Positions 23,335-63,463 of a stretch of DNA of 64,000 nucleotides are shown one piece after another. A program made the position numbers and the translations under genes. Below the pieces are notes generated by a model that searched no databases, was not told the DNA's origin, and saw only the letters and a list, made by a program, of their open reading frames with translations. Positions within the stretch are counted from its first letter, which is position 1, and each line of letters begins with the position of its first letter. Source of the DNA: Macrocystis pyrifera (lineage: Eukaryota > Sar > Phaeophyceae > Laminariales > Laminariaceae); assembly GCA_031763025.1 (NCBI GenBank), contig JASSKH010000020.1:11917547-11981546 (forward strand), in the 5' to 3' direction.

Positions 23335-26300
23335 ATGACCCAGTCTAACGGACTAAGCCCGAGGGCAAACAAGCACCCCCACAGCAACATCAGCAGCAGT
23401 AGCAGCAGCAGCACCACCAGCAGCACCACCAGCAACAGCAACAGCAACAGCCAGGGGGGCACTACCACTCCTAACCGATTCTTTCACGGCTCTACGCTGC
23501 CCAACATCTCCCCCGCTTGCCATCAAGAAGCATCCACCAGGAACTCGGACGAGGTTGCTTTCGAGGGGCTCTTCTGGACAACAGGCGAAAACAACAAAAT
23601 GAGGCCCAGATCTCCGAAGCAGCAGCAGCCTACATCGGTGTCAGGATCCAACACGAGCAACAAGCTCCACGGGGCACCAGCTGCACGCCAGACAGCGACA
23701 CCCATGCGTTCCGCGGTGCGCTTCCCTCGCCATCATGGCCACCATGATCTCAGCGGTCCCGCTGCTCTCCACTCTCCGCCCCGCTGGCGTATCGGGGAGC
23801 AGCGTGCAATCAGCACGAGCTGCTGCTGGTACTCGTGCTGGTGCTGGCGCTGGCGCTGCGGTGAGGCCTTCTGGTGGGGTGGGAGGGGTGCACTGCTCCT
23901 CGTTGTATCACGGCTGGTCTGATGACAGCCCGGTCGACAGAGGGCAGTGCGCTCCTCTTTTGCCGACTGCGATCATCGAGGCGGACGGGGTGGCTGGTCG
24001 GAGTGCACATGGACAGGGCGCCATCCTCTCCGCCATTGAGGAGGCTGCGTGGCTCGGCGGCCGCCGCTACGCCAAGGTGTGTTTTTGTTGTTCTTGCTGT
24101 TGATGTTTTTTTTCGTTGTTTGTTCTTTTCAGACGTACACAAAAACCAAGTGCGTCAGATGTGAGTTCGACCAATTCAGTGGTTAATATTAATATTAATA
24201 ACAACTTTGTGAGCCGAGTCTTGTGTTTTTTAGTGCTAAGCTCTTCTCGTTCAACATGATACCTGGTGGGTACTTGACACTAACTATTTACCAGTACTTT
24301 TTCTTGGTTGCGCTTTTTTGGGATAGAATCTTGAATCTTGCTTATTTGCTGCCGTTTGTACTGCCAGTGCTTGCTGGACGAGTTAAAGAAGTATTCTACG
24401 TCCATATGTAAATCCTACCTACCGGCGCGGTCAGACGGAAACGTAAGTACCATTTGGTCTTCATATGTGTACCCAACTGTCGTTATATTTCCGTCCAATT
24501 TGGCGCCAAGAATCTCTGCTATTCGGGTTTATGGCGTCTGATGTTCCGAGTTCCGAGCTGTTGGGTCTTCCTTTTTTTGTTCATATTATTATACCGAGCA
24601 GGCACAGCAGAGGCAGTGCCGCTGCTGTAATTTCCAGCACAATATCCACCAAATGGATGTTGATGCAGCCCAGCAAGCACGTACTACCTAGATGCAGAAA
24701 TCGGTGGTGAAATCGGTGGTGAAAAGACCAAGGGAAGGATGGATGCACGGATCAATAAATAGACGAAAGGGTCTTTTCACGGAAGTCTAACCCCTGCCAT
24801 CCTCCTTGGTTGTTGCGTGCCCTTGCTTGCTCTACTACCTATGCGTCCCGTTCTGTGCACAAGAAAGATTTTTTTTTTTTTTTTTTTTTATCCTCCTTGG
24901 AGATCTGGGTAAAAAAAGCTTACGCCCAACACAGAAAAGAAAGCCTCACGTTTGTTTGTAGAAAAAAACGAGCATGCATATACATATATTTATAAGGGGT
25001 ACATCGGCCCGCTCGCGCGTGTGAAATGCATGCGCGCATGCGCTCGTTTTTTACGTATACAATGTGTCTACGGCAGTCATTTTTGTTCAGCGCCTGGAAA
25101 TAACGAAAAAGGACAACCATCTCGAGGGATGCTCGCTTGTCGTGCTCGTTGTTATAAGTATCATACCTCATCATACAGCATACCTGTCATGCCTGGTTTT
25201 CACTTATATACGTACTCGTACAACGTATATGTAGATACAACAGCCACTTTTGTCCAGCCTCTGTCAAGTATCGGCAGAACCGTCGAGGGGTCCAAACTGA
25301 TGAAAACAATGTCACACGGCACACAGCAGTACTCGTAGTTATGGACCAGTCGCCACCCCCGCTACAGACTCTCCCGCTGCATGCATGCATGATGGATGCA
25401 TTATACTCGTGTGCACACATGGAAATTATCAGACATATCGGTACTCTTACCTATCGGAAGTATAGCTTCATGTTTGCCTCAACACCAACCGCCAGAAAAA
25501 TCATCACCATCCACCCCGGCTCACCCTACCCTCCCTCCTCCCCTCCCTTCCCCTCCCTGCCTCCAACCGCCGTCTGCCTCCTCCCCCTCCTCTTCTGCTT
25601 CCCTACCTCTCGGCGTCCTCCTCCCCTCCCCCCTGTCCTCCCCCCCCTGCCCCCTCTGCATCTCCCCCTCCTCCTTTGCCCCCCTCGCCCGTCCTCCCTC
25701 CCCCCCGCCCCACCCCCCCCCGCCCCTCCCTCCTACCTTACAACAAACCAACAACAAAACGAAAACAAAAATCGTTCGTTTCACTTCACGGTCCGGCTCG
25801 GTTCGGCAGGAATCTCCCACACCAGTATTTCGTTCGGGCCATGGAAGCCACCCTTCACAGTATCGCGACGGCAGACTCCGGTGCTAGCGTAGATGTAGTC
25901 CTGTTCAGCGAAGGGCGATGGGGCGGCATAGTGGACGAGGTCGGGGTGCCGTTGGACTGGAGCGTGCCGCAGGAGATCTGCGCGGGCCTAGGCCTCCACT
26001 GCACTCAGGTAACATAAATACATGGATATTACGGGGGTCCATAGTTAATAGGTAGGACCTATGGTATACACAAAAACCTATATATTTATCTATTTTTACC
26101 AACAATATTTGGTCCTATTTACTATGGAATAGATCTATAGATAGATAACCATGATGAGATGAGATTACATTCGAGTCGAAGATAAGGTGGAGTTAGACTA
26201 GATAAGACGTATTTTTGAGTTTTACGCCGCGTGAAAAAACAATATGTTCAATCAAGTATTAAAAATTAAAGGGCTTCAGCCATTCCTCGCAAGGGCTCAC

Positions 26301-28999
26301 TAATTTTTTCGACGCCGTGACAACGTTACCTACTACTGTAGCAGTAGCAGTAGCAGTAGCAGTAGCAGTAGCAGTAGCTGAGCTGTAGAAACAAACTATA
26401 GTAAGAGGGTGAAAGAAGATGAGAATTACGCAAAATAAGATTACATGAGATGGGAGATGTGCGCGGGGTTTCATTTAAGGTACCTGGTACGTAAATATAT
26501 CAGAAGGGGAAGATAGGAGAAGAGTTTAGTTCAGGTCTGTTTGGACCTAAACAAGTTCTGGCGTGTTGGGATATGGTGCGGCGTTCGCCGTCGATTTAAG
26601 TTATCAAATCATATACCTGGTACACGATAAAGCACTTTTCGCAGTTATTCAGTGCCCTCTGCGTTCCCTCCATGCGTGGGGACAAAAGGCGGACAAGGCG
26701 GATGGGCCCCCTACAATAATAATTGCTGTAAATCAGCTCACGCTTTTAGTTGTTCGGCGCGGTTCTCCCTGGCTCTCCCTCTCCTTCCCTCCCTCCTCTT
26801 GATTGGGGTGGTGCATGGTAGAACGCTTGCCCTGAACGCGATTTCGTCCCGGAACGAGTGAAGTCTCGCCTCACTTTATTCCCATCGTTTCGAACGAATT
26901 ATTTTTTAACGCTTCCGGTTTTTCTTGTCTTCCTTGTTCTTCTCCCGTTCTGTGGTTTTCGTCCAGACAGGCCGCGATTCTGCTTCATAAATTGAACCAC
27001 GTCGTTTCGAACGAATTCCTTTTTAGACGCTTCCGGTTTGTCTTTTGTTTGCTTCGTTGTTCTTTTGTTTCTCCCTTGCTTTGTATTATCGCCCTCACAT
27101 ACCCGTCAGAGTCATTATATCGCAACATATCGCAACATAATGACTACTACGATATCGCATGCAAATCCTTTCAACGCCCCTTTAGGTAAGTTGGTATCTT
27201 ATCGAGAGCTGCACAATTGTCTCATCGTTTCAAAAAAAACTTTATGTTCAACTTTTCACTCTTCCCGTGGTTTATTTTACTATATTTCGAGAGCTACAGC
27301 AGCAGTAGTACTAATATTTTTTGCTATAAACCCCTAAATAGTACCGCTCTGTCCCGAAATATAAAGAATGCTTGCATGTCAATGTTATATCCAAAAGGTG
27401 TTTATTTTGCGAGACATAAAAGTGGTGCCAGTACAAGATATCACATCGTTTCCTGTTAAGTTATTAATAATTTTTAGCGCTGCCGAATTTTCGATTTTTC
27501 GTACTCCTCCTCCTTCTTAATTTTGCTACTTTCTATTTCGTTTTCGATATTTGTTTTTGTGTGGACAGACGGTGATTCTCCTCAACGACCTTGGCACGCT
27601 GGCGGAAGCTTTGGACTGCCTCTCAGTCACCGATGTCTTGGTGGCAAGCGAGAGCGGTTTCTCGAAAGCCGCGGCGGCGCTGTCCGACCACATTAAGGTG
27701 CGTTTTTTTTTTTTTTCGTTTTTTTTACCTGTTTATCCTGTCCTGGCAACCATTTTCTTTTTTTTGCTAGTTTTCACTTGCTTTCATTATTGGCAGTATA
27801 TTACTTGTATGGCTAATGTTGTGCTCAGACAGCAAGTGTATCGTGGGTACCGGTCGTACATTTTACTTTCCGACTTGAATCGAGTATCAACCCTTTCAGT
27901 TTACTGCTATAAAAAGTATCCTGCGCTAACTAATTCCAACTATGTTGTCCCAAAAAATGCCAGTGCAGTTTTCTACAAATAACGGTTAGGGTTAGGTTTA
28001 GGGTTAAATTGTGCTCGACTTTTGTAAAGAGATTATGATACCTCAACTCTTTGTACCGTTACCTTTTTATCGATACTGCAAAAACAAACCTACACTACAA
28101 GTAAAATACGTCTTAGGGGGTTGTTATTTTATTTGGCAAGCCTGTACGCATTTTGCGTATGCCGTGTGCGCATGCATGCGTGTCGACCACATCAACAAGG
28201 GTGCTTTTTTTGTGGCCGCTGCATGAATGCATATGCAATATGCATGTCGACTACACCAAGGTTGATTTTTTGTGGTGTTTGCATGCACGCACACTATGCA
28301 TGTCGGAACACATCAAGATTAGGTATTCTGTACTCTTTGCTGTCTCTTTGCATGCATACAGCATGTCGACAACATGAAGGATAACCTTCTCTTCTTTCGA
28401 CGAGGTGATCTCTATGCGCATGAACCCCTTGGGCTCACACGTATATTTTTTAGACAAATTATTAATAGTTGGAAATTGGCGCGCGCAGTACAGGCTGATT
28501 TAGCAGTACAGGTTTGTACACGGGTGTAATTTTTTTTGCCTCTCGAAATAGGTTCGTTGACAGCCATGTATGTACGCATGTAGCACAACGTCACGGACCA
28601 CATTCAAGTGCGTGTTTTGTTTTTGTTTTGTTTGTTTTTGTGTCTGGAGATGGGTTGGTTGGTTAGTTGTTGGCGATTATCATGCGTACGTACGTGTACG
28701 CATGTGATTGTGAAGAGTGACTATTACTACTACTGTACGTCGCATTGATGAATAGATAAATAATAGCACAGCAGTTGGCGTGTAGCTATAATATCAATGT
28801 GTCGACTTTGCCAACGTGCATACAAAAAATTAATTTTACTCCCCTTGATAGGTAGATACACCCTCCCCGTGCATCCTATTGGCAAACTCCACTAACGCCC
28901 TATTTAATATTGTTATGAATAGGGGCTGACGAACAAGTGACACACAATGTAAAAGCGCTGCACATTGTCAGATGGCATACAGAATAGTGATAGTAACTT

Positions 29000-29080
<81 letters not shown>

Positions 29081-32979: not shown

Positions 32980-33003
32980 TTTTCTGAATGACGGGGTTCC
33001 TTA

Positions 33004-36544: not shown

Positions 36545-36629
<85 letters not shown>
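36521..36629. repeat. ACGACTAGGGCCATGCATGA element with 84-C tract
   Basis: TACGACTAGGGCCATGCATG, then ATACCGAGTA, then 84 uninterrupted C. Related plus-strand copies: 37105, 37190, 37255, 37365, 56280; inverted copies with G tracts: 37800, 37835, 38000, 38165. Confidence 0.85.
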
Positions 36630-36630
<1 letters not shown>

Positions 36631-37533: not shown

Positions 37534-37677
37534 TTACCCCTGTTCCTCGTCTCGAAGGCATGGGCACAGCGTGTTCTTGATCATGGCGCGACCGTAAGGG
37601 ATGTAGGAGGCCGTATACCACACTGCTGCCATCATCTGGAAAATCAAAGCTAGAAGGACAATCCCGAACGGCGCACC
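37534..37677 (-). CDS. SFT2: SFT2 last exon, helix 4 and stop
   Basis: Acceptor TTGCTCAG/GGTGCG, 47 codons, stop TAA at 37536-37534. Contains YTASYIPYGRA, the most conserved C-terminal motif of the family, and a CPC tail. Confidence 0.92.
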   Translation of the reverse strand, partial: GAPFGIVLLALIFQMMAAVWYTASYIPYGRAMIKNTLCPCLRDEEQG

Positions 37678-37865: not shown

Positions 37866-40800
37866 GGGAGGGGACTGGGGGCAGGGAGACGGGGGGGGAG
37901 GGGGGGGTAGCATCGTCAGAAGGAGCGGTGAAAACAGTAGCGGGAGAGAGTTAGGGAGGGAGGGAGGCGTAGGGGGGTAGGGGGGGGGGGGGGTACTCGT
38001 GTCATGGATGGCTGTAGTCGTACGGCCATAGACCCTCCCATCCCTGAAGGAAAGGCGGGGGTGCGCTATCTAGGGTCGATCGGTCCTTTGTCAAAGACAA
38101 GGAAGGAATGGGAGGGGGGGGGGGGGGGGGGTGTACTCGATAGGAGAGATGTATTCGATCTCATGCATGGCCGTAGGGGGGGGGGGTACTCCTTTGTTGC
38201 TTGCCTCAGTCGTTCGAGGATGAGCACTCATGCCTTTGGCCTTTGGAGGCGGAGCACCGTTTCTACTCCCAACACAAGACACCTCCAACATGTGTCCGTA
38301 TTTTACAAAGAAACCTTTGTGGGGGTGCTTGTACCGAGAACTTACGGTCGGGGTAAGGAGGGTGGGAGGAAACATGCCACCACTACCACTACCACCACCA
38401 CTCCCACTACTACTATTACGGGGGTCTATAGTAAATAGGACCAAATATTGTCAGTAACAATAGATAAATATATAGGTTTTTGTGTGCACCATAGGTCCTA
38501 TTTACTACGGTCCCCCGTAATAGACATGTGCTACGATAGAGATAGCACTGTTTACCCGCAAGGCAACTATTTGTGACTGACGGAGCTCCCCAACTGAGCA
38601 ACCACACTAACTCCCCCAATAGGTAATGCCTTATCGCTGGAATGACCCCTAACTCAGGGGTCCTTTTCGTTTCAATATTTATTGTCGTTCACCACGGGTA
38701 CTTTTGATGTCTTGGGTGGCTTACTTGTTGTGTCCTCGTACCCGGTACGTTGGCATTGAGTTTGCTCACCGTGCTCCAATTGCGAATATTCTGTTCGGTT
38801 TTATCTGGTGCCAGTCTGTCGCCACACAATTTGTATTCTCTCTATATACAGGATGAAGAATCAGGAGGGACACTGGACGTACTGATGCCGGTGGGTAGAA
38901 AGGACGGTGGAGTGTGAAGACCACGCACACACAATACGATAGGCCAAGGTTTACGCCCTCTCCGGACTTAAGCAGGAAAAATTGCCGATCAAAAGTGTCG
39001 AATGAAAAGCGATGGCCAATGCGTGATTGAGGGACGATATGATACCACTCCATGGTCGAGCTACAAACGCTACGAGTCGTACCGCACGGGCTGAACATCA
39101 TCATCATCCTACCCGTACCGCGTCTGGGCGCTCGCGGTTCAATGGTTGATACTATCGCGAATGGCCATAGTAATCCGGACTCATCGTATACACAAAAAAC
39201 CCTATATATTCCAGTGTTTGTACTCTATGCACTCGTACACCGTTGATAACACCAAAGTCAGTCGTGTTGTGTTATTGGTCGTTGTTTTGGGGTTTCAAAA
39301 GGGGTTTAAGTGTCCACTTTTGTTTTATCAAAATCATTTTCGGGGGGGGGGGCATTCCTCAAGCGAGGAGCCTCAGAAAAGAAAAAGAAACAGAAACTAC
39401 CGTGGTACACATACATCAGCACCTCTGCTGGATCACAACCACCGCCACTATCTCCAGCCACTGCCAATAAAACCGAGCCGAGACAAGGAAACAGGTCATG
39501 ACTCACGATGAAAGCTAGAACGATGACAAAAATGAGCAGAATCAGGTATGCGGCACACGCGATCCTCCTTTTCTTGTGGCACATCTTCGTGCACTGTCGC
39601 CGGGGACCAATCAGAAACCTGGGGTGAGCCGGGACAGAGCAGCGTGACAAGCCAATCAGGTGAGGGCGATGTCAGTTTCGGTTTGCAGCATTGACTTCTC
39701 TTTTGGTGCGCCTTTCCCGTCTCGTGTGCAATTGGAGCATTGGAGCAGAGGGGGGGGGGGCATTGTGGTTCCCCAGTCGAGTTCTGATGGGTTTTTTTAA
39801 CTGATTTTTCGGGATTTCGTAAGGTTCCGGCACGTTTTTTGTGACCGCAGACTAATAATAACACGATAATAGGATAAAAAAATACCTGGTGGTGTCAGTA
39901 ATTAGACTCACGTATGGGGTGTGAACATAGGGGGATTGACTTGACGATTTTTCCCGGGCCAATAGTGGGTTCTGATGACTAGGACCTCCTGAACTAGATC
40001 AGGGCGATGTGTTACTGCGATAACAGCAATAAACAACGACCATAACCCACGATCAATCAGATTGATACCGACCGATCATCAGAGCAACTGACAGGGCATG
40101 GTGCCAACAGCAGCGAGGCAGTTGGCTCCACGATACTTCAAACCAGATCAGAGTGTTACGAACAGTATTGCCTGTCTCATCGCCATCAGCGCCATAGCGT
40201 CAGCATTGCAAGGGTTTGTTCAGCAGGGTACACACGGGAATGTACTCTGAAGGGATACCCGGGTATGTGCTTCAAAAGGGTATCCGCGCATGTACTCTCA
40301 ATAGGGGACCCGGGAATGTACTGTTAGAGTTCCTGGGTATGTACTCTAAGAGGGTACCCGGATACGAACTTTAGTAGGGTACCCGGGTATGTACTCTAAG
40401 AGGGTACCTGCGCATGTACTACAAGGGGGTACCCGGATATGTATTCTAGGGGGTACCCGAGTATGTACCCTAAAAAGATACCGGGTATGTACTCTAAGAG
40501 GGTACCCGGGCATGTGCTCCAAGAGGGTACCCGGGTATGTACCCGGGTATGTACTGCAAGAGGGTATCCGACTATATACTATTAACAGGGTAAGGGGTAT
40601 GTACCTCAAGAGGGTACCCGGGCATGTACTCGAAGGGATACCCGGGTATGTATTCTAGGGGGTACCCGAGTACGTACTCTGAGAGGATACCCAGGCATGT
40701 GCTCTAAGAGAGTACCCGGGTACGTACTCTAAGAGGGTACCCGGCCATGACTCTAAGGGGACACCCAGGTCTGTACTCGAGAGGGGTACCCTATTACCTA

Positions 40801-41116: not shown

Positions 41117-41290
41117 CTGGAATGTGAGGGAGGGACACATCGCGCACATCTCGTTCGCAAGCGTCGGCTCCTGCTTTTTAAAACAGAGGCGCGCATTTTG
41201 TTGGGTTGGGTTGGGTTGGGTTGGGGTTTCGTATGGCCTGGAGGCGTAGGGGACACATCGCGCATATCACGTTCGTCAGTGCGAGCTCTT
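41117..41290 (-). repeat. Tandem duplication next to SFT2 acceptor
   Basis: GGGACACATCGCGCACATCTC (first 20 bases compared) and GGGACACATCGCGCATATCA recur about 115 bp apart, separated by a GGGTT run, directly upstream of the exon on the minus strand. Confidence 0.7.
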
Positions 41291-41543
41291 GAACTTTGAA
41301 ACAAACTTTGAAACCGACGGCTTAGTGTTGGTCAAAACGACCGTTGGGTTGGGTATGGCTGGGCATGATAGAGGGGATCGCAAACATCTTTTGCTATACA
41401 GCCACAACAGCACCGACAACACCAACATGAACATGAACAGGACTACATCACAATCCAAAGCAGCACCACATCATCAACATCACAAACACAAATAGGAATG
41501 TGAGTTGTGAGTTCGTCGGCTGTGAGTCAGTCGCCGACGAGTT

Positions 41544-41650
41544 ATTACGGAGCACCATAGTTAATAGGACCTACGCTGCACACAAAAGCCTTTATATCTA
41601 TATATTTTTACCAACAATATTTGGTCCTGTTTATTATGGCCCCCCGTAAT
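41544..41650. mobile_element. MITE family A copy
   Basis: 107 bp, flanked by AGTT on both sides (41540-41543 and 41651-41654). Confidence 0.92.
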
Positions 41651-46430: not shown

Positions 46431-46961
46431 TGCCTTACACCGGTACTGTTCGCCATGGAAGGGGGTCTCTCAAAAAGGGCTGCCATATACCTAAGCCTGT
46501 ACCGTGGTACCCCACACCCTAACCCTGATTATCATCGAACTTGACCAACTCCGTGCCATACCAGTGCCATATCAGTGCCATACCAGTGCCTGTGCAGTTA
46601 AACAATCTGTTAAGAAAAAGAGGCTCAGATCGGCACGAACAATGTTAATAGTAACATTGGGTTGAGAAACACAGCTCAACCGCAGTGGGAGCAACTCTGA
46701 ATCCTATACAATAGAGTTAGATCAAGGTCGGAAAAAAAAACTGTCGTACCAGGTATCTGGTAAAGACATTGAGCCTGGACACCAAATCGACGTTTCTTAA
46801 CACTTGACGCCCACTACTGTATCAAAATGTCCGGAAATATAAGGACCGGATAGTATTTACATGAATAACAAATCGGTCCTAACATTTCCGAACGGGACGG
46901 TAATTTGTACCAGAGTGCGTATCATACCAGGTATATACCGGATACTGCTGCACACCAGGCC

Positions 46962-47309
46962 GGCGTCCCCTGTGGCTTTAAGCTTGGTAGGTGGTCCGCG
47001 TGCCTGTCAAGATCAATTTCGTGGGTTCAAGTCTCACCGAGTGCATGCTCATAGGGACTTTTTCTGGCATAAAAAGATGATAAGCGGAAAGCGCGAAAGC
47101 GTGAGTTGGCTACATTCGATGAAAATCGACGAGCAGTGGGAATGCTGAACCCTACGCGCGATAAATAATAAAGGCACGTACCGGGGGGGAGAAGGGACGA
47201 CACCTGTGACAACGGCTTGTCCAGAAGATCGTCGAGGGTAAAACCTCCTACGAGTGGGCTGGAAAGTAAAAGTGATGCATGATGAAAAAAAAAAAAAAAG
47301 AAAAAAAAA
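46962..47309 (+). mobile_element. tRNA-derived SINE, copy 2
   Basis: The same head with a better B box (GGGTTCAAGTCTCACC), same body, and an A-rich tail of about 30 bases. Its tail and matching length support retroposition. Confidence 0.85.
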
Positions 47310-47319
47310 AGTACTCGTA

Positions 47320-49145: not shown

Positions 49146-49284
49146 ATGATGAACGATATGGGCGGAGGAGCGGGTGGCGGGAGTGCGGGGGGCTTTGAAG
49201 GCGAGAGGCCGCTGACTGTGACGAGCGTGCTGAAGGAGTTCCAGGGGCTTAAGGACAAGTTTAAAAACGAGGACGAGGACGACT
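49146..49284 (+). CDS. COPG: COPG exon 1
   Basis: ATGATG start, Gly-rich stretch, then [20 protein letters not shown]; donor GACT/GTGAGT in phase 1. The acidic end matches the usual N-terminus just before the SPF-LEK segment. Confidence 0.85.
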
Positions 49285-52400: not shown

Positions 52401-55400
52401 CTCGTGTCTCCTCCGGAAGCGGTGGGTTTCCGTACTATGATGTGGCGTGTTTCTTGGCCGTGCGTACGATGAAATAACGGCGAACGTACCGGCAAGGTGA
52501 ATCAGTGGTTTACCTCGCACTGCCAGTACATGCTGTACCAGTCATTGCCCAAAAAGCTATTAATAGGTATCCCCTCATGGTTACACACCATATGTACAGT
52601 TGACTACAATATGTTTACTATAATTACGATGTTCACTGTGGTTGGACAAGACACGTATGATATCCCGGTAACCTTGGTTTGATGCTGTCAAGATGGGGCA
52701 CTAACCGTTCCTCCCCCTGTGCTGGCGCCGTACCCTACATTCGACTCTACTATTGCATACTACGGTAATAGTACTACTGTAATGCATACCAGGTATTACG
52801 GGGGACCATAGTAAATAGGACCTACGGTACACACAAAAACCTATATGTTTGCCTATTTTTACTAACAATATTTTTGGTCCTATTTACTGTGGCCCCCCGT
52901 AATAGTATCAGTAATAATGCATACCTACTACTACTATTACGGGGGTCCATAGTTAATAGGACCTATGGTATACATAAAAACCTGTATATTTACCTATTTT
53001 TACTAACAATATTTGGTCCTATTTACTAGGGTCCCCGTGATAGTACTAATCAGAACCAAATATGCTGTGTAGGCATGATGGGATAGGCCGTTTTTGGGCC
53101 CACTATAGTGGGTGCTGATTACTACCTGGTATACCTGGTATACCTGGTATACCTGGTGCCGGGTATGTATATATTATTACTATTACGGGAGTCCATAGTT
53201 AACGGGACCAAATTTTGTTAGTGGAGCCTCGTACTCGTTTATAGTATCGGAATACGAAGCATGTTAGCGTTTCAAATATATCGGTTGAACTCACAGCTGA
53301 CGTGCTTTCTTAGTTTCTTATAAATATATATATATCAATCTTCGAGGAACCTTTCCGTAATTATTTATTTTTCGATTCGGAAATGCTATCTGACCAAAAC
53401 AATTAAATAAATTGACCCCAATTTCATTTTATTTATTTCGTACTGGAAATAGAGAGAAGTGTTTATTTTCCGTCTTCGGGCACACGAAATAGATAAATAT
53501 ATAGGTTTTTATGTATACCATAGGTCCTATTAACTATGGACTCCCGTAATACCAGGTATGTACCACTATGTGTGGCCCTCCGTGTTATCGAGTATTAATA
53601 GTAGCAGCCTGGGTTTCTTGGTGTGGGCGATGCTGCAGTTGTCAGTCAGCTCTCAAGGTCTATATCACCGCTTTGCACGGGTCGGTCAAGAGTTTGAAAA
53701 CCTACTGACCCGACCCGACCCGACCCGGCCCGTTAGCCTTGAATACTTTCCCGGCCCGACCCAATCCGTGAGATTTGAAAATCTTGCTGACCCCACCTGC
53801 AGGTCGGGTCATCACCCGTGAAGAGCCCTGAAATTTTCGCCCCTACGCTCCAAAAGGGGTTGTGTAGGTTTCGTTTCGGCATTGACGGTTTCGTCCCCTT
53901 TCCCCCCCTCTCGTAAATTGCCTCCTTTTTGTAGTTTTTGGACATCGTGTCGACAGTTTCGACATACATATGTTGTGATATATATATCGAATGTCGAGTT
54001 TTTAGTGGAGATCGTGTCGAACGTGTTTTGCTCTCCATCCCCGGGCATCCTCGAGTCTTTTCCATGCTGAATGCTGACGCTGGGCAAAAGCTTCGATGTA
54101 TCGAATGTCGAAATCGTACCGATTACGATTGTTTTCTTGTTTGTTGGTGTCGTATCGAACCCTAGTTTTTTCGTCTCTTGTGTTGACGTTTTTCACCCTT
54201 TATCTACAGATCCAAGATTGGAAAAGTGACGGTTCGGCAGGATTCTGACCGTTTCAAAACCAGTTTATCTCCCTTGCAGCGTGCTTACTTTGGTCATTGA
54301 CGGTTCCGTCCCAATCCCCCTCTTAAACATGCCTCTTTTCATCTCCGTGTTGACAGTTTCGCATTTCCAGGACTTGGAGAAGGCGACGGTTCCGGTGGAT
54401 AAACGGCGGTCTCTTCCCTTTCCCAGCCTTGAAAACAAAAACAAAACCAAAAGTGATGATTCAGTCTGGATGGTTGGTGCTGACGTTTTTCTCTTTTCCT
54501 CCGCTTACAAAACAACAGGCCCGTTCTCCCCCCCACGAAACAAGCCTGTTTTATTTTGGGCGATAATATTACTTAAATCGATCGAAGTATTATTAATAAT
54601 ATGACACATCGCCTACAAAGATGAGTTTCGACGAACTCCTCGATCTCACAGCTGTTGCTTTTTTCGTTTTTATCAACACTGCAGAAGGATATGTTGGCTG
54701 TGAGGTCGATAGACATGTTCGAAAACCATATTTGCACATGCTGCGTGTTGATTTTTTGTTTGCACAAGCTGCGTGTTGATTTTGTGATCGCGGTTCTGAC
54801 GGTTTGACGCTTCTCCCTCAACCCGCGCTCATTTTTCGTTGTTTTCGTAAAAAATTATGCAAGGTTATTTTCTTTTGAGATTATTTGTTCGAAACCCGTG
54901 ATTGCTGTCTGCGTGCAATGCTGTGCTACAGTACTTGGGGTCGCGCGTACAGTACTTGCACCTTGTTGTTGGACAGCTTCGCCCCAAGCATATGCCTTTT
55001 TTTGTATTTTGTGTTGGCGTTTTCGCCCTACTAAACTCACCGCTCTTATAGTTTCGTCAATTTTTTTGTGACAGTTTCTCTCGAAACATGGCCCCTTTTG
55101 TGGTATATTTTGACGGTTTCGCCCTAAACACGCCTCTTTTTTTTTTCCTTGTTTTTTTTTTTTTGTTTTTTTTTGTTTTGACAGTTTCGCCATACCAGGA
55201 CTTGGAGAAGGCGACGGTTCTTCAGGAGTGCCGCGTCTTTAGCGACAGCAATGTTGTCACCACACACCCCCGCCGCTGCGGACTGCTCATCACCAAGCTT
55301 CTGTACATCCTTACCCAGGGAGAGACCCTATCTTCCTCGGAAACGACTGAGGTACATATCATGTTATATCACATCGTACCGTACCATATCATATCGTATC

Positions 55401-58400
55401 GTATCGTATCATATCATGTTATATACTGTCGTATCATGTACCAGTATATAGATGGCGTCTCTCTTTAACGAAAATACTTGAGTGCCACCCGCCCCCGACT
55501 CAACCGCCTTCTGAAATTAGCCAGCCAACCCCTGTAGTGTGCTGTCCCTGGTGTATACTAACAGATAATAACGCTTGAGGCCAAGTCAAGCGGTAGCCAC
55601 CAGTGTTCGTATAAAACTGTCCTACCTGGTGTATTCGTGGTGATTGCTTTTCGGCGATGTTGCGGTTTTCGTTGCTATTGCCATGAGTTTCTTCTAGAGG
55701 GATACCGATATCGTTTACCGTGAGTTCTACGAGGTACCTGATAGCTCATGGTATCATACCCGGTGCAATCGTTGTTTCAAGTACGTATTACACCTGTTTT
55801 TGTTTAGTTTTTGCTGAGCGTTCCCGGCCACGCTGCTGCACGTCCTTACCCGGGAGAGACCCTCTTTTCCTCGGAAACGGCTGAGGTCAGCTTTTTGTTT
55901 CATGTAGTTGTATGTAGGATTGTTTCTGTAGTTTTGTTTTGCCGGGAATAAATGCGTACTCGTACCTGTTATCTTCACATTAAACCGTCATTTCTACCTA
56001 GCTGCGCCGGTACACCCAGTGTCCGTCCTCATTATTTATCCTAGACAGATACAAATTATGTGGTCGCAGACTGTGAACCGTGGAAAACACAATATATAGT
56101 CGCAAAATTAGTCGAGGTAAACCAGGTGAAACGGCAAAGTACCGGGCACGAGAATACAGGACGTATTTTTTCGATTTATGCCTGGTTTTGATTTGTTTAG
56201 TTGCTTTCCGCCACGTAAGTGTAAGACGCACGCGGTGTTCACGACACACATGTAAACCACACCCCTACCCCAAGATCGTACGACTACGGCCATGCATGAT
56301 ACTGAATACCCCCCCCCCCCTAACCAAGAATCCGAGCCGATCTTCTCCGAATCAAGGGGGGGCACACATGTTGTGGCGTTGTGGCAATCAGGGGGGCATG
56401 TAACCGTAAAAAGCGGCGTCTGTTATGACGGTTCGGTTTTGACGTTTCAAGTCCTACTTGAGTCGCCCTTTCCCCAAAGGCAAAAATCTCAGGAAACGGC
56501 ATCTTGAGTCATAAATTTTGAAGCTCCCACACTAAAACTGGTATATTACGCCTGAAGGGCCGTCCGTCATGGATCTAGACTGCCATCTCCGGACGTAGTC
56601 GCCCCGAGTTGTGTTCCGGGGTGACTCGCAAACTGTTTCAGAGCCAGGACCACAGCATCACAGCATGCGGCGTACGAGTCACCTGGTCGAATGAAGGGAG
56701 GCGTTTACCCATGACACGCAGCGTGTGGTGTAGCGGTTCGGCTTGACCGCTATGTTGCGTCACCCCCCTCCCAGGTGTCCTTCGGAGTGACAGCGCTGAT
56801 CGAGGACGACAACCTGCGGCATATCGTGCACCTGTTCAAATCAAAGAGGCGTGTAACCGTAAAATGCAGTGCGTATTGTCTCGGTTCGATTTTAACGCAT
56901 ATATTGCGCCGCACCCCCCCCCCCGCCCCCTATTCCCAGGTGTTTTTCGGAGTAACGAAGCTGTTTCAGAGCCAGGACCACAACCTGCGACGTATGATGT
57001 ACCTGTTCATCAAGGAGGTCGCCGAGACATGCGACCCGGATGACGTCATCATCGGTGAGTTTATTGCAGTGGGGATGCGGGGTACTACTATTGTTGTGCC
57101 CAATTTTACCGTTTTCGGACTGCAGTCCCGTTTTTGTGACAATTGTAGACAAGTTACTTGAAATTAGAGTGCTTTGTCCCCGAAACGGGACTGCAGTTCT
57201 TGAAGATTTAAGACCTTTAAGATTTTTTTTTTTTTTTTTTTTAATCCTCCGGCGGATTGGTAAAAAATAAAGCTTAAGCTCACCACACTTGCACGTTCCA
57301 ATTTCGTGTCGTGTGTCAATTTAGCCCATAGCTCTCTCCCGTTGTAACATCAGAACAGGCTGCTGTTACCCCTGGAGTTTGGGCACGTTCACCCGACCTG
57401 ACCCCCGAGAGGAGCAGGTGCGGTGGAGATCATCCGGTTTAATAAATACGAGGGCTACTATTAATAATTGGTCTTCATGTTGATGTCTAAACGATACTTA
57501 CGGTATAGTGCCGCCCAGAATGACCAGACTTTTCGGCAGGTGAGACCAGGTGAATCCGGTGGTCACGAGAAAAATTTAACTACGTGCAATCGTACGGGAT
57601 CATGTTTTCAGTATTACCGGGGAAAATAGTAATCAGGACAAAATATGCTTTTATTACGGGGGGGTCCATAGTAAATAGGACCGAATATTCTCAGTAAAAA
57701 TAGGTAGATTATAGAGGTTTTTATGTATACCATAGGTCCTATTAACTAGGGACTCCCGTAATAGTAAAAACACTGGAATATACGAGTTTTGTGTACAGAA
57801 TGGGTCCTGATTACTATGCCCCCCCCGCAATAGTAAAAGATGAGACCATGTTAGAACTAAGACCACGTTTATTTGGGCAGCTTGTCATGGGGTGGTCTGA
57901 AAATCGGTCCACCACTACACTGTTTTTTTTTTGTTGACTTTTATCCTCCGACGGACTGGCAAAAAATAAGAAAAAACCAGAAAAAAAAATAGAGCTGCAA
58001 CCGCTGTACAGGAAAACATCTAACTCTAATTTGAAGTAATTTGTCCCGTAACGGGAGTATAATGACGAAAAGGGTTAAGGTCATCACCTTTATATTTCCA
58101 CATGCGTTAGATAACGCAAGTGTCCGATGCTGCCGTTGCAGCATCAGCAGAACAGGGTGCTCCTATCGTATGATATGTATTCATGCCTCGGGCCTTTGTT
58201 TGTTTACCGTCCCCTTCACTTTCGAGCTCCATTTCAAACGCAATTATCAAGAATGACCGGGGATACGTGGTACCGGCCCCCCAGCTCTCGAGCGGCTCGC
58301 AGGAAAGTTCTGGGAAACAAATGGTGTTTGTTTGGTTTTTGAATGTTTGACAACTGCCCCTACGTACCGTATAAAACTTCCTCCGTCCTCCATGTTGTTC

Positions 58401-61400
58401 CCGGCCGGCCGGTCTGTTGTTAGCTGATCCTTGCCTTGATCATGGTGCTCCTTGTTAAAGCTGCGGCTGCTGCTGCTGCTGCTGCTATGCTGTTCGTCTT
58501 GATTGGTGCGTTGGGACTGCCGTGTGCTGCTGTTAACCATGAATAAACTATTTGTTTTGAAACGGAACGCAGTGACGTCGAGCTTGACGAAGGACATGAA
58601 CTCTTCGGAAGACCTCTACCGTGCCAACTCCATCCGTGTTCTCTCCAGGATCATCGACGCCACAATGCTCGGTGCTATCGAGAGGTATGATGCTATCGAT
58701 GTATCTTACTCAGTGGTACCAGTGTACTGGGAGATGCTGGTACACGGGGAGGTGCTATTGAGTGGTACATGTGCTATTGAACGGTCTAGGTACCATACTG
58801 GGATGTACTGGTACGTGTTATTGAGTGGTCTAGGTACCAGTATACTGGAGCTTAGATATACTGGAGACACTGGTGCGTGTTATCGAGCGGTACCACTCTG
58901 ACTCAACATGTAAGGAATTTTTTATTAAATTGATATGCTAACTGTACCTATATTGCAGGTCAGACTGGTACGTGTTTTCGAGCGGTTTAGATATCAGTAT
59001 ACTGGGAAGCATAACGCGTGGATGTGTTATTTATGAGCGGTCTACCACAGGAATCAGTATACTGGTGGGCACTGGAATGTGCCACTATTGTAGGATGTGA
59101 TCATCATGTGGTGGTGTGTGTTACTTGTAAGTTATACCTACAGCAGTAGCGGTCATGGCATCTTTCTGGCGCTGTGTGCAGCTGAGAAGTGCAAGCATGC
59201 ACTACTGTATTGAGAATTACCAACATTTGCCTGTATGTGTCGCTCGGAGATACCCGTACGTCTGTTGCTGAGAAGTACCGAGTATGTGCTACTCAGAAGT
59301 GCCCAAGTACTTGTGTCGCTGAGAGGAGAACCCGGTTTTGTTACTGGAAAGTACCAAGTAATTCATGCGGTACTAGAAGCAATAACGAAAACAACCCCCG
59401 CTGCCAAAAAATGCAATCGCAATGAAAACCCCAGGTACCTCAAGCAGGCCATTGTGGACAAGAATGCTCTGGTGTCCAGCTCGGCCCTGGTGTCCGGTAT
59501 CCTGCTCTACAAGATCAGCCCGGAGGTAACTTATGAAAACAAGAGTAACATGAGCAGTGCGGAACCCGAGTATTAGCAGTTTCACGCATCAGACAGACCA
59601 TACAGATGATCATGGTCTATCTTATCTATCTGTCTACTGTAGATGATCTAGCTCTTCACCTGCCGTTGCGAGAGGCTGTTCAGGATCTGTCTTATAGGGC
59701 AGATCCAACCCAGGAAACATGCGCTAGATCATGTGGGCAGCAGATTATACGGGGCCCGCCCGGCAACTTGAGCTGAATAATACTTGACGCTAAAAAGTGT
59801 GATGACGATGATTTCAGCAACGGTATCGGCGTGATTGGGAGGCGGTAGACATGGTTGGTGTCCTATTTACAATGGTTGAAAACAAGGGAGTCGTACGATG
59901 ATTCCGGCAACGCTAAGTGCGTCGTGACTGGGAGCCGGTAGACATGGTTGGTGTCCGAGTTACAATGGTTGAAAACAAGGGAGTCGTACGTAAGTTTGGT
60001 GCACTAGTTAGCAGCGGGAAAACGATCACTATCCTAGGAGATAGATGGTGGCCACAGGCGGCGAAACAGGAACGGGATAAGATTAGCAAAAAGTTTCTGT
60101 GTAGTATATGCAAACAACGTCATGAACACCCAACTAAACTGTTGGAGGTGTCTCTATTAGGAGTAGGAACGGTGCTCCGTCTCGAAAGGGATGCGTGGTC
60201 AATGGTCAAATAACTAAGGCGAGCAATAAATGAGTACGCTCCGCCCCCGCTGTTTTATGTTTCTTCATTTCTTGTTTCGTGTTTTGTGTTACGTGGTCAG
60301 GTGGTCAGGCGGTGGGTCAACGAGGTCCAGGAGGCAGTGACCTCTCAGCACGAGATGGTACAGTACCACGCTCTCTCCCTACTATACCAGATCAAAGCCC
60401 ACGACAGGCTGGCAGTCTCCAAGCTGGTGAGATGCATCGATCACGTTGTCGTGCTTTGGTTTGGTTTTGTTCCGGCTTTTGCTCCTCTTGGCTTGGCTTG
60501 TGTCTATTGGTGTTGTTGATGATGGTAGTGATTTTGGTGGTGGTGGTGATAGCGGTGGTGACTTTGTTGGTATTGGCGTTGGTGATGGTGGTGGTGGTGA
60601 TGTTTTTTTTTGCCGTTTCCGTTGATGTCGACTCTACGGATACGTCTACTGTGCCCGTGAATTGGAACTGACTGTCCCATGTATTTTTTCTTTCTTGAAG
60701 CTCAGTGACATGCATGTATAGTTACCATATTCATATATTCATCTCTTGTTGCGTCTGTTTGTGTGTTTGGTTGTTTCTTGGAAACTCGTTGGCATGTATG
60801 GTGTGTACGTTCGTTGCTTTCATCTCCTTTGGGGTGTGTTTTGTGTTCCAGGGTGTGTGTGTGTGTTTTTTTTTATAAGGTCGTTCGCATTTTTTTTCTT
60901 CGTTTTTGTTTTTTTCGTCTCTTCTTGCGTGTGTTTTTTTCGTCTTTCTTCAAGCTTTCTTAACAAACTCGTTCTTTTTCATCTCTTGTTGCGTGTGTTT
61001 TGCGTTCCGTCTGCGTCGGGGGGGGGGGGGTTTATTTTCTTGGCTTCCGTCGAGTCAGGTGACGCAGCTTTCGCAGAGCCCAATGCGAAGCCCCCTTGCG
61101 GTGTGCCTCCTTATCCGCTACATGAGCAAGATCCTCCACGACGACATCTCCGCGACCAACGCGAGAGCGGCTTACCAGGTATACCCGAGCTTACTACGGC
61201 TGTGAGTAAGCTGACTATAGCTCGCCGACCCTACAAGGTGGTACCGACCTGCAAACAAATAGGGCTGCGAGTAAGTTGACGGTAAGCCGCCGACCCTATC
61301 AGGTGTGACACTAACCTCCCAGCAATACGATAGGACTGCTGTGAGTTAAGTTGGGAACAAGTCGCGGACCCTATGAAATAGGTTTGTTAGTAAGTTGACG

Positions 61401-63463
61401 ATAAGCCACCGACCCGATCAGGTATATGACATCAACCTGCCTACGGCTGTGAGGAAGTTGGGAAAAGATCGCGGACCCCACGAGGCACCAATCTAGGGTG
61501 CGCCCTTCCGTCGGTATTCGATCAACCATGGATATCCCGATAGCCACACTGGAATTGCTTTAGTCGCACTTCGTGAGCTTCGCACTAATTGTCTTACTGT
61601 TTTTGCTTTCAGTGTCTAACTACACCCGCCGCTTTACTTGCTTGGAAACGGCCGTGCTAAACGCAACGGCAGTAAAGTTTCTGGAAATTTATCGCCCAAC
61701 CCGCTCTCCTTGTTTGGAAACGGTCGGTCGGGCGTGCAAATATAGCGCGAGTAACAAGCTCCTGATTTTCATGTTGTTTTTGCTCGCGTGTCTGAATAAA
61801 GTTCCTGGAAAGTTCTCTGAGACACCGGTCGGAGATGGTGATGTACGAGGCTGCCAGGGCGATCTGCAACCTTCCCGGAGTGGAGATGAACGATCTCTCC
61901 CCCGCCATCAACGTCCTGCAGGTGTGTCTCGGTGACTTGATTCCCATTGTTTGTGAGCGATTTATTGGTTCCACAGCGGTCTACTGTTTTTTCTCTCGCG
62001 TGGGAGCCGTATGGTCTGAATGATCGAGGGCAAGTCTCCTGGGTTGGATCTGTGCTTCTGTGCAGAATCCGCACGACAAGCACGGCAGGCTAACGATCTA
62101 GATGAAGGCACATACTATAGATCGTCATATATCTACATACCAGGTATCAATTGTTTCACTTTTCGACTCTTGATGTTCTCCGTTTTTTTTTCCGTTTGTG
62201 TGCCCTAGTGCTGGGATCTGAATGATCTAATGATCTAATGATCTAGATCTAGATCGTCATCCATCCATCAATACTTGGTATGTCCGACGTTGTTCGCCAG
62301 CTTATCACTGACCGACTAGCACATTTTCGTCGTTGTTTTCTGTCTGTTTTTTTGTTTTTTTTCGTTCTGGACTCTTGTCTTCTAGCTGTTCCTATCCTCG
62401 GTGAAGCCGGCCCTCAAGTTCGGCACCATGCGGACTCTGAGCGAGGTGGCAGCCAAGTATCCGATGAGCATCATCAAGTGCAACTCGGACATGGAGGTTC
62501 TCATCTCCGATCCTAACAGGTGGTGAAACGGCTGTTTTTTTTTCTTTCTTTCTTTCTTTCTTTCTTGCAAGGGTTTGAGTTTAGTTTATTTTAGTTACTT
62601 ATTGAGTTTTTGTTGCTATTTGGGCTTTTGGAGTACTTCATCGTTGTAGGGAGTTTTTGGAGATGCTTAACTTTATAGGAACATGGCAGTTTTGAATTAT
62701 CTGATGATTTTTTCGGCGATTTGTTTTTCGTCAACGGTTTTGTCAACAAATTTTGTTGACGAAAAACTTTTTTAGATGCATGATTTTTCCAAGCAGTTTT
62801 TATACTTGCTGACGATTTTGTTGGCAAACGTTTATGATATGTAGTTATGTTGACGATTTTGTTGGCGATGTTTCTTGTTTTTCCTTGTTTGTTTGTTGTT
62901 TGCGCAGATCGATCGCGACGCTAGCCATCACGACTTTGCTCAAGACTGGCACGGAGGGCTCGGTGGACCGCCTGATGAAGCAGATCTCGTCCTTCATGAA
63001 CGAGATCGCAGACGAATTTAAGATCGTCGTCGTCAAGGCTATCCGTCAGGTCAGTAAGGAGGCGTTTTGACGGCGATTCAACGCTTTTTTTCATCTGTCT
63101 CGCTGTCTCTTTCTCTACTTTTTCCGTGTCTCTCTGCACAATCTCTGCCTGTTTTTTAGTTTTGGTCTCGTTCTATCGTTGCCTCGTCTGTGGTGATTGC
63201 TTGGTTTTGGCTCTCTGTAGTTTGGTCTACTCTCGGTTTCGTGTGCTTTAAGCGGGCCCTTTCCTTCCCTCTCCTTCCCTCCTTCCCTCCCTCCCTCTTG
63301 CTCTTCCTCGTGATCACTCCAGCTGTGTCTGAAGTACCCTCTGAAGCACCGCGTACTGGTGGGCTTCTTGGCCACGTTCCTGAGGGAAGAGGGGGGTTTC
63401 GAGTTTAAGAAGGCCATCACGGACTGCATCGTCGAGCTCATGACCGCCATCCCCGAGACAAAG
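49146..63463 (+). CDS. COPG: Coatomer subunit gamma (COPI coat), N-terminal part
   Basis: Eleven exons are visible and the gene continues past the window end. Exons 2-11 join in perfect phase and read as the adaptin-type alpha-solenoid of gamma-[139 protein letters not shown] and [14 protein letters not shown]. Gamma-COP forms the F-subcomplex of COPI, which returns vesicles from Golgi to ER. Tandem ATGs at 49146 and 49149 start a Gly/acid-rich head. Exon 1 ends in phase 1 but exon 2 begins in phase 0, so a micro-exon of 2+3n nt (expected SPF-like linker) is missing from the 5.9-kb first intron. The appendage domain lies outside the window. Confidence 0.96.
49389..49421. repeat. (TGC)11 repeat in COPG intron 1
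   Basis: Perfect TGC triplets about 100 nt after the exon 1 donor. Confidence 0.95.
49799..49895. mobile_element. MITE family A copy, right end decayed
   Basis: Good left arm (ATTACGGGTGACCATAGTAA) and core; the right arm is scrambled beyond TTTGGTTATTAAA. Confidence 0.8.
50313..50419. mobile_element. MITE family A copy in COPG intron 1
   Basis: 107 bp, flanked by AGC on both sides (50310-50312 and 50420-50422), consistent with a 3-bp target duplication. Confidence 0.92.
50455..50975 (+). repeat. Dispersed repeat with CCCGGAACTTCTGTGAGTT units, copy 3
   Basis: Head AAGGTTGTGTTGTGTAGGTT and body as at 6945, here inside COPG intron 1. Confidence 0.8.
51131..51991. mobile_element. ~860-bp element with ~35-bp terminal inverted repeats
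   Basis: The left end AGCTGTGAGACCTATGCCAA (in 51131-51165) is the inverse of the right end TTGGCATAGGTCGCACAGCT (in 51955-51991), continuing into GAAGC/GCTTC-type flanks. The interior has overlapping minus-strand open frames of 64-117 codons that I cannot assign; a non-autonomous or decayed DNA transposon is most likely. Confidence 0.75.
52795..52903. mobile_element. MITE family A copy in COPG intron 1
   Basis: 109 bp; the left end overlaps an ATACCAGGTAT motif. Confidence 0.92.
52937..53041. mobile_element. MITE family A copy in COPG intron 1
   Basis: 105 bp, only 33 bp after the previous copy and in the same orientation. Confidence 0.92.
53182..53550. mobile_element. MITE family A copy split by ~260-bp insertion
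   Basis: Left half 53182-53226 (ATTACGGGAGTCCATAGTTA) and right half 53486-53550 (ATATAGGTTTTTATG...CTCCCGTAAT) together make one element. The A/T-rich 53227-53485 segment between them has no coding sequence that I can see. Confidence 0.85.
54345..54395 (+). repeat. Copy of COPG exon 2 acceptor and 5' edge
   Basis: TTGACAGTTTCGC, a CCAG acceptor and GACTTGGAGAAGGCGACGGT are shared with the real junction 830 nt downstream, then similarity stops. A weaker third copy lies at 54208-54240. Confidence 0.85.
55199..55351 (+). CDS. COPG: COPG exon 2
   Basis: Acceptor CATACCAG, 51 codons, donor ACTGAG/GTACAT. Encodes [14 protein letters not shown] and [20 protein letters not shown]. Pieces of this exon recur in both flanking introns. 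Confidence 0.95.
55825..55886 (+). repeat. Copy of COPG exon 2 3' edge and donor
   Basis: Matches exon 2 from CTTCTGTACATCCTTACCC to TCGGAAACGACTGAGGT with substitutions and two small deletions that break the frame. Lies about 500 nt downstream of exon 2. Confidence 0.85.
56609..56700 (+). repeat. Second, more decayed copy of COPG exon 3
   Basis: Shares CTGTTTCAGAGCCAGGACCA with the true exon and the following GCGGCGTACGA-like stretch. Lacks an AG acceptor at the matching place and is out of frame. Confidence 0.7.
56775..56848 (+). repeat. Degenerate copy of COPG exon 3 with intact acceptor
   Basis: CTCCCAG precedes GTGTCCTTCGGAGTGAC, matching the real exon's start. It reads [20 protein letters not shown] in the exon 3 frame. 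The frame stays open through the 91-nt spacer into exon 3, so use of this acceptor would insert 55 residues. It might be a decaying duplicate or an alternative exon. Confidence 0.75.
56940..57054 (+). CDS. COPG: COPG exon 3
   Basis: Acceptor TATTCCCAG, donor ATCATCG/GTGAGT, 115 nt. Encodes [20 protein letters not shown]. Two degenerate tandem copies precede it. Confidence 0.95.
57112..57206. mobile_element. MITE family C copy in COPG intron 3
   Basis: GGACTGCAGTCCCGTTTTTG and CCCCGAAACGGGACTGCAGT arms around TTGAAATTAGAGTG. It begins 57 nt after the exon 3 donor. Confidence 0.85.
57613..57831. mobile_element. MITE family B host element (interrupted)
   Basis: Inverted ends ATTACCGGGG/CCCCCGCAAT with AGTAATCAGGAC/GTCCTGATTACT arms, related to but distinct from family A. 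A half-copy is recognisable near 39157-39225 (CCATAGTAATCCGGACT...CCCTATATATTCCAGTG). Confidence 0.7.
57653..57762. mobile_element. MITE family A copy nested in a related element
   Basis: 110 bp, inserted inside a second foldback whose halves are 57613-57652 (ATTACCGGGGAAAATAGTAA) and 57763-57831 (ending CTGATTACTATGCCCC then CGCAAT). Confidence 0.88.
58018..58077. mobile_element. MITE family C fragment
   Basis: Core TCTAATTTGAAGTAATTTGT, CCCGTAACGGGAGTA and terminal AAAAGGGTTA are retained; the left arm is missing. Confidence 0.6.
58573..58684 (+). CDS. COPG: COPG exon 4
   Basis: Acceptor ACGCAG, donor ATCGAGAG/GTATGA. Encodes [19 protein letters not shown] and [12 protein letters not shown]. 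Its donor edge seeds the intronic minisatellite that follows. Confidence 0.96.
58685..59065 (+). repeat. Minisatellite seeded by COPG exon 4 donor
   Basis: Units containing GTGCTATTGAGTGGT or GTGTTATCGAGCGGT, near 58750, 58766, 58826, 58872 and 58969, match the exon's last bases and donor (GTGCTATCGAGAGGTAT). They alternate with GGTACCAGTATACTGG. Confidence 0.75.
59435..59525 (+). CDS. COPG: COPG exon 5
   Basis: Acceptor ACCCCAG, donor CCGGAG/GTAACT. Encodes [20 protein letters not shown], a highly conserved gamma-COP stretch. Confidence 0.96.
59808..59990 (+). repeat. 92-bp tandem duplication in COPG intron 5
   Basis: GTAGACATGGTTGGTGTCC and GAAAACAAGGGAGTCGTACG recur with a 92-bp period, two copies. 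Confidence 0.9.
60301..60426 (+). CDS. COPG: COPG exon 6
   Basis: Acceptor GTGGTCAG, donor AAGCTG/GTGAGA, 42 codons. Encodes [20 protein letters not shown] and DRLAVSKL. Confidence 0.96.
61059..61178 (+). CDS. COPG: COPG exon 7
   Basis: Acceptor CGAGTCAG, donor TACCAG/GTATAC, 40 codons. Encodes [19 protein letters not shown] minisatellite containing donor-like CAGGTATA starts at the junction. Confidence 0.94.
61179..61485 (+). repeat. Minisatellite seeded by COPG exon 7 donor
   Basis: About five units of 60-75 bp share GTGAGTAAGTTGAC, GCCGACCCTATCAGGT and CCTACGGCT. The fourth unit (ATCAGGTATATGAC...CTACGGCTGTGAGG) matches the true exon-intron junction. Confidence 0.75.
61802..61921 (+). 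CDS. COPG: COPG exon 8
   Basis: Acceptor GAATAAAG is weak but forced by an in-frame TGA just upstream and by homology. 40 codons: [20 protein letters not shown] then [17 protein letters not shown]. Donor CTGCAG/GTGTGT. Confidence 0.92.
62386..62519 (+). CDS. COPG: COPG exon 9
   Basis: Acceptor GTCTTCTAG, donor CTAACAG/GTGGTG. Encodes [20 protein letters not shown]; the usual RYAAVRTLNKVA has drifted to [12 protein letters not shown] here. Confidence 0.95.
62908..63049 (+). CDS. COPG: COPG exon 10
   Basis: Acceptor TTGCGCAG, donor CGTCAG/GTCAGT. Encodes [20 protein letters not shown] and [20 protein letters not shown], the best conserved region of the protein. Confidence 0.97.
63323..63463 (+). 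CDS. COPG: COPG exon 11 (last in window)
   Basis: Acceptor CACTCCAG, donor ACAAAG/GTATAC, 47 codons. Encodes [20 protein letters not shown] and [12 protein letters not shown]. The following intron runs off the window and carries a MITE. Confidence 0.96.

What the first reader, a model, noticed from the sequence alone, without database searches (positions are those of the whole stretch)
23735..63463. Splice-junction echoes: exon edges recur in neighbouring introns across two or three genes
In COPG (exons 2, 3, 4, 7), the glycosyltransferase-like gene (exons 4 and 5) and SFT2 (one inverted copy), the duplicated pieces cover the exon-intron junction rather than random intron sequence. This suggests a local duplication process that favours splice junctions, or selection for decoys. 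I know of no described process giving this pattern at so many exons.
Basis: partly seen in the sequence, partly recalled or inferred. Interest (0 to 1): 0.8.

Follow-up and report, generated by a model that had tools for sequence, protein, structure and literature searches.

The report
Duplicated exon edges in kelp introns
In a gene that is very probably from giant kelp, and in a neighbouring gene, small pieces of DNA that straddle the border between a coding stretch and an intron have been copied into that intron; the same oddity, called "mirages", is already known from lancelets, so this looks like a new example in a distant organism rather than a new kind of thing.

Summary
The echoes are real. 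The assembly's size and contig count match the published giant kelp genome. Exons 4 and 7 are tandem units reaching 13 and 5 nt into the exon. The third gene's copies are weaker, and it has no Pfam match. Six junctions carry head-to-tail units of about 65-150 bp, 2-5 copies. Direct copies lie in the intron adjoining the copied edge (7 of 7).
Such boundary-spanning repeats are published as "mirages" in amphioxus, so "no described process" is wrong. Junction preference is unresolved. Counting independent duplication families shows one: 8 of 13 against 2.9 expected, hold-out 3 of 3 against 1.2; but numbers are small, one gene supplies 6 of 8, and I devised this count after seeing the hits. No sign of selected decoys: 11 of 15 echoes keep the splice dinucleotide, as identity alone predicts.

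The parts
55199..55351 (+). COPG exon 2; both edges are echoed
54347..54392 (+). echo of COPG exon 2 acceptor edge (24 intron + 22 exon nt, 42/46), upstream in intron 1
55828..55887 (+). echo of COPG exon 2 donor edge (E 1.1e-12), downstream in intron 2; one-base deletion breaks the frame
56940..57054 (+). COPG exon 3
56570..56867 (+). two further tandem units (about 150 bp) of the exon 3 acceptor edge; the unit 56868-57018 holds the working acceptor (80% and 70% identity to it)
58672..58885 (+). two tandem units (99, 115 bp) starting 13 nt inside exon 4; marginal (76%, z 5.4)
61174..61485 (+). array of five units (45-71 bp) starting 5 nt inside exon 7 and running into intron 7
41132..41363 (-). 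two tandem units (118, 114 bp, 78%) over the SFT2 exon A acceptor; unit 41132-41249 holds the working site
40172..40220 (+). inverted echo of the SFT2 exon A donor (40950-41000), 42/51
28878..28939 (+). echo of the third gene's exon 6 acceptor (29109-29168); weak
28596..28638 (+). weak echo of the third gene's exon 5 donor (27686-27726), partly poly-T

Best explanation
The echoes are leftovers of small local duplications, mostly head-to-tail, whose unit reached from the intron into the exon. After such a duplication the copy that joins the rest of the exon keeps working and its splice site, the outermost one, is used; the other copy falls inside the intron, is spliced out and decays. Some units were repeated again into short arrays. 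Shown: the copies, their tandem layout at six junctions (one marginal), their side, their decay. Inferred: the order of events, use of the outermost sites (no RNA data) and lack of function. In kind these are the 'mirages' of amphioxus. Whether duplication starts more often at junctions than elsewhere is undecided.
For: Adjoining units at COPG E3 acceptor (3), E4 donor (2, marginal), E7 donor (5), E18 donor (2, perhaps a third), E19 donor (3) and SFT2 A acceptor (2) (borders of five of the six families shown). Direct echoes lie in the intron that adjoins the copied edge: 7 of 7 purely exonic edge 40-mers scoring 26 or more, of 62 edges; 7 of 7 junction windows scoring 24 or more, of 40, one of them nearly tied 26 to 24. 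Tandem duplication predicts this. Reading the outermost sites gives an intact COPG frame for exons 2-11. Echoes carry frame breaks and lost splice sites. In the ten junction pairs, exon parts are better kept (374/426) than intron parts (308/384), as expected if only one copy is constrained.
Against: E2 acceptor, E2 donor, third-gene exon 6 acceptor and E18 acceptor (real copy against its echo at 3.1 kb) do not abut, and no clear homology at the predicted offset was found outside the matched piece: ranks 10 and 24 of 130 (E2), 116 of 130 (third gene), 81 and 58 of 135 (E18), though the two E18 echoes do agree with each other at 390 bp (ranks 2 and 9 of 131). The SFT2 donor echo is inverted. These need template switching, or tandem units since eroded.
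Confidence: 0.75

Rival explanations
1. No junction preference: local duplication is uniform, and junction copies stand out only because exons are recognisable and one copy is protected from decay.
For: Window test: 60-mers scoring 32 or more, 4 of 40 junctions in the window and 2 of 18 in the hold-out, against 19.7% of 1038 and 28.0% of 429 intronic windows, unmasked. A neutral simulation gives junction/intron ratios of 0.32-0.69; observed unmasked at score 28 about 0.47 in both stretches. At score 26 with full masking, 6 of 40 junctions against 16.6% of intronic and 14.7% of intergenic windows.
Against: Family counts: 8 of 13 against 2.85 expected by random placement, P 0.0025; the neutral simulation, 288 replicates in six settings, gives overall ratios 0.57-0.77 and no replicate reaches 2.5. 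From intergenic density, 0.8-1.7 expected and 8 seen, though that density rests on 4-5 families. At score 40 with full masking the junction/intron ratio is about 1.1 (window) and 1.7 (hold-out), above the simulation.
Confidence: 0.5
2. A mutational process starts small tandem duplications preferentially at exon-intron borders in this genome.
For. Hold-out alone: 3 of 3 families span a junction, P 0.035 by placement, 0.002-0.016 by density. A like pattern in amphioxus.
Against: Few families, one gene supplies 6 of 8, the window was chosen because of the pattern, the family count was devised after the hits were seen, the result varies with masking (ratio 2.1-2.8; single-hit count only P 0.048-0.082), and the window test is negative.
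Confidence: 0.35
3. The echoes are kept by selection as decoy splice sites or alternative exon pieces.
For: 11 of 15 echoes keep AG or GT; the exon 3 echo lies in one open frame with exon 3.
Against: Both exon 18 donor echoes and the second exon 19 donor echo lost GT, and the SFT2 acceptor echo lost AG at the aligned place; overall retention is what identity predicts; the exon 2 donor echo is frameshifted and the nearer exon 18 acceptor echo holds a stop.
Confidence: 0.06

Closest known systems
[quoted passage not shown] PGBD5 in PMC3902484, passage read)
   Same: Tandem units with intron and exon parts; both donor and acceptor edges; units 150-160 bp (globins), 10-72 bp (Adh3), 60 and 108 bp (PGBD5), here about 65-150 bp; few copies (3 and 6 in two haplotypes of BflGb6; 2-5 here); many but not all keep AG/GT.
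   Different: Organism is very probably a brown alga; copies are more diverged (59-89% between units here, against 81-100% in BflGb6); some echoes do not abut and one is inverted; no RNA or haplotype data here.
Variable internal tandem repeats at exon-intron boundaries of human genes in segmental duplications (PMC2812944, passages read)
   Same: Tandem repeats lying on exon-intron borders.
   Different: Recent, variable between paralogues and able to form new introns; short units (30 bp on average).
Inter-boundary and intronic exon duplications (Exonize, PMC12343006, passages and results section read)
   Same: Exon sequence matching intronic or exon-intron stretches of the same gene; reported in significantly more genes than full-exon duplications.
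   Different: A catalogue across 20 genomes; no statement on junction preference in the passages read.
Intron gain by tandem genomic duplication (PMC3443670, PMC2891723, passages read; PMC4974935, search listing only)
   Same: Tandem duplication of a short segment carrying splice signals.
   Different: There a duplicated exonic AGGT creates a new intron; here existing introns lengthen.
Duplication of an exon with adjacent intron in mutually exclusive exons (PMC6071210, passages read)
   Same: Unit covers exon and neighbouring intron.
   Different: Whole working exons there; broken exon edges here.

Membership tests
mirage tandem duplications | tandem repeat spans an exon-intron boundary | tested here: met
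   COPG E3 acceptor, E18 donor, E19 donor, SFT2 A acceptor; E7 donor by 5 nt; E4 donor by 13 nt and marginal
mirage tandem duplications | both 5' and 3' boundaries are affected | tested here: met
   donors E4, E7, E18, E19; acceptors E3, SFT2 A
mirage tandem duplications | copies are head to tail | tested here: met
   met for six arrays; not met for the E2 edges, the third gene, or the real E18 acceptor against its echoes, which are therefore filed only as echoes
mirage tandem duplications | regular splicing is not disturbed | not testable with these tools
   no RNA data; outermost sites give an intact COPG frame for exons 2-11
mirage tandem duplications | copy number varies between haplotypes | not testable with these tools
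   one haploid assembly
intron gain by tandem duplication | intron lies at a new position | not tested
   no related genomes held
selected decoy splice sites | splice dinucleotides kept beyond neutral expectation | tested here: not met
   11 of 15 kept, about 10-12 expected from 80-88% identity (by eye)

The most novel reading that the evidence does not exclude
Kelp, like amphioxus, has a mutational process that starts small tandem duplications preferentially at exon-intron borders, several-fold above background, and so lengthens introns from their edges.
Probability: 0.3. Interest if true: 0.65.

Novelty: new member of a known kind. Interest (0 to 1): 0.42.

Why it matters
If the preference is real, introns grow from their edges in two unrelated lineages, which would make the origin of long introns and of cryptic splice sites testable by simple counting. 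If not, it still shows that mirage-type duplications occur far from lancelets, and that exon-edge echoes can mislead gene prediction.

Tried and rejected
Survivorship as the whole explanation of the family excess: a pairwise simulation gives 1.1-1.5 fold longer detectability; the full forward simulation gives a deficit against random placement, so it does not suffice alone. Tandem unit equal to the present offset as the null: 7 direct junction families among 13, 3.65 +/- 1.54 expected; two of those 13 (SFT2 40136, COPG 60738) pass only the E 0.05 cut. Random stretches of the same genome as a second gene sample: 28 stretches of 10 kb; the predicted exons (51 at score 20 against 26 on reversed sequence, 31 against 5 at score 24; L030 included) look by eye largely like repeated transposon genes, so unusable. 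Counting echoes in other genes by HMM or protein search: PF00118 gave 54 matches, with two pairs of profile ranges overlapping by more than 10 positions, but the positive control failed, since known COPG echoes were not reported at E 10; no conclusion drawn. COPG protein in viral contigs: nothing. COPG exon 1 (49146-49284) does not join exon 2 in frame; its donor was kept in the junction counts although that model is uncertain. Junction placement at hold-out exons 15 and 16 is approximate; the exon 20 acceptor was shifted by 3 nt. The family-level count was written after the hits had been seen, and the hold-out ORF list had been read by eye before.

Ten paper searches were run in one open-access library; only two named kelp or brown algae. 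I saw no report of boundary duplications in brown algae in them, which is weak evidence of absence.

Full report
What the window is. The window lies at C201:11917547-11981546 of an assembly of 537,376,219 bases in 223 contigs. The published giant kelp (Macrocystis pyrifera) assembly has 537 Mb and 35 scaffolds plus 188 contigs, listed as 223 (PMC10498591, passages read). So it is very probably giant kelp, a brown alga; the identity rests on these numbers only.

Gene models. COPG runs on the plus strand from 49146 and continues past the window. Exons 2-11 join in frame and match coatomer gamma at E 1.6e-147. Exon 1 is uncertain. SFT2 is on the minus strand, exons A 40974-41170, B 39507-39618, C 37560-37677. 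The third gene (23735-29316; exons 4-6 searched) has no Pfam match at E 1, so its "glycosyltransferase-like" label is unverified. A fourth gene at 10430-14113, also without a Pfam match, was added as a control.

The copies. Sixty-base windows centred on 36 junctions were aligned to 2.5 kb on each side, with reversed flanks as control. Four direct hits (score 32 or more) and one inverted hit were found, none in the controls: COPG E2 acceptor and donor, third-gene exon 5 donor and exon 6 acceptor, and SFT2 A donor (inverted). BLAST with masking adds COPG E3 acceptor and SFT2 A acceptor. Longer alignments and unit-by-unit comparison show that E3 acceptor, E4 donor, E7 donor and SFT2 A acceptor are tandem arrays of 3, 2, 5 and 2 units of about 150, 100, 65 and 118 bp. 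E4 and E7 reach only 13 and 5 nt into the exon, and E4 is marginal.

A hold-out stretch. There the exon 18 acceptor is echoed twice upstream, the exon 18 donor twice downstream (with a further weak tandem unit, z 2.5), and the exon 19 donor twice downstream. The exon 18 donor unit of 93 bp is followed directly by its copy. So new cases turned up in the same gene outside the stretch that prompted the finding. The other hold-out junctions showed at most a weak copy (exon 12 edge, score 29).

Side. Of purely exonic edge 40-mers (62 edges), seven have a direct local copy scoring 26 or more, and in all seven it lies in the intron adjoining that edge (reversed control 1 of 62). Among 40 junction windows, seven score 24 or more and again the best hit is on that side in all seven, once nearly tied. 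Head-to-tail duplication predicts this; insertion at random would not. For the E2 edges, the third gene, and the E18 acceptor against its echo at 3.1 kb, however, no clear homology at the predicted offset remains outside the matched pieces, and the SFT2 donor copy is inverted, so not all events were simple tandem duplications, or some have eroded.

Is it more than elsewhere? Two kinds of test disagree. Junctions 4 of 40 in the window and 2 of 18 in the hold-out; intronic windows 19.7% of 1038 and 28.0% of 429 unmasked. With transposons, tandem arrays and low complexity masked: 3 of 40 and 2 of 18, against 10.5% of 657 and 10.9% of 211. Exon-centre 60-mers: 1 of 22. A neutral simulation with exon constraint gives junction/intron ratios of 0.32-0.69; at score 28 unmasked both stretches give about 0.47. 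Only at score 40 with full masking do the ratios rise above it, to about 1.1 (2 of 40 against 4.6%) and 1.7 (2 of 18 against 6.6%). (b) Counting independent duplication families in genes (BLAST E 0.01, within 3 kb, dispersed repeats dropped, tandem and low-complexity stretches masked): 8 of 13 span a junction against 2.85 by random placement, P 0.0025; COPG in window 3 of 6, hold-out 3 of 3 (P 0.035), SFT2 2 of 3 (P 0.04), third gene 0 of 1, control gene 0 of 0. Keeping long-unit tandem arrays: 8 of 15, expected 3.5, P 0.008; across the masks and cut-offs tried the ratios are 2.1-2.8, P 0.001-0.015. The neutral simulation gives overall ratios 0.57-0.77 in six settings of 48 replicates each, no replicate reaching 2.5. 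From the intergenic density of families (4 in 27.9 unmasked kb at E 0.01), 0.8-1.5 junction families are expected and 8 seen; in the hold-out 0.24-0.48 against 3. An earlier count by single hits gave 5 of 14, P 0.048; 5 of 17, P 0.082; 6 of 23, P 0.064, at rising E-value cut-offs.

How I weigh this. The tests measure different things: (a) asks what share of sequence lies in repeats, which a few large intronic arrays can dominate; (b) asks how many separate events there were. Test (b) points to a several-fold excess that survivorship does not explain in my simulation. But there are eight families, six in one gene; the window was chosen for the pattern; the family count was written after the hits had been seen; and only the hold-out is free of the first choice. 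I call the preference unresolved, at about one in three for a real mutational bias.

Function. Aligned AG or GT is kept in 11 of 15 echoes (read by eye); 80-88% identity predicts about 10-12. Both exon 18 donor echoes have lost GT. The exon 2 donor echo is frameshifted. Nothing suggests selected decoys or alternative exons, except that the exon 3 echo shares an open frame with exon 3. There are no RNA data.

What is known. [quoted passage not shown] units are 10-160 bp, both boundaries are affected, many but not all copies keep AG/GT, and the authors' data suggest that splicing is not disturbed (PMC3087553, passages read). PGBD5 of lancelet has imperfect 60 and 108 bp repeats over splice sites (PMC3902484, passage read). 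Human genes in segmental duplications have tandem repeats at exon-intron boundaries (PMC2812944, passages read). [quoted passage not shown] The six tandem arrays here meet the sequence features of mirages that I could test. My searches of one open-access library, two of which named kelp or brown algae, showed no such report there.

Noticed in passing
38411-38523, 41543-41653, 43219-43331, 50309-50421, 52794-53044, 57652-57764, 63788-63897 and others: A short element of about 110 bp with inverted ends (TATTACGGGGG...CCATAGTAAATAGGACC), many copies in both orientations, also in other stretches of the genome (L012, L017, L019, L022): probably a MITE-like element.
   Followed up: partly
21111-21446 and 46961-47314: A dispersed repeat of about 340 bp, mostly 88-95% identical to copies in L015, L019, L022 and L023; one part resembles a tRNA B box, so perhaps a SINE (my reading, not tested).
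   Followed up: no
29001-29078 and 36546-36629: Uninterrupted runs of 78 and 84 C on the plus strand, the first inside an intron of the third gene.
   Followed up: no
40226-40791: Minisatellite of about 25 bp units, some 22 copies, in an SFT2 intron.
   Followed up: no
L030 (C194:8174553-8177693): A second, diverged coatomer-gamma-like stretch on another scaffold, PF08752 E 2.4e-8 with one TGA inside the match: paralogue or decayed copy.
   Followed up: no
59805-59990: A two-copy 93 bp tandem duplication wholly inside COPG intron 5, 88% matches: an intron-only counterpart of the junction arrays.
   Followed up: partly
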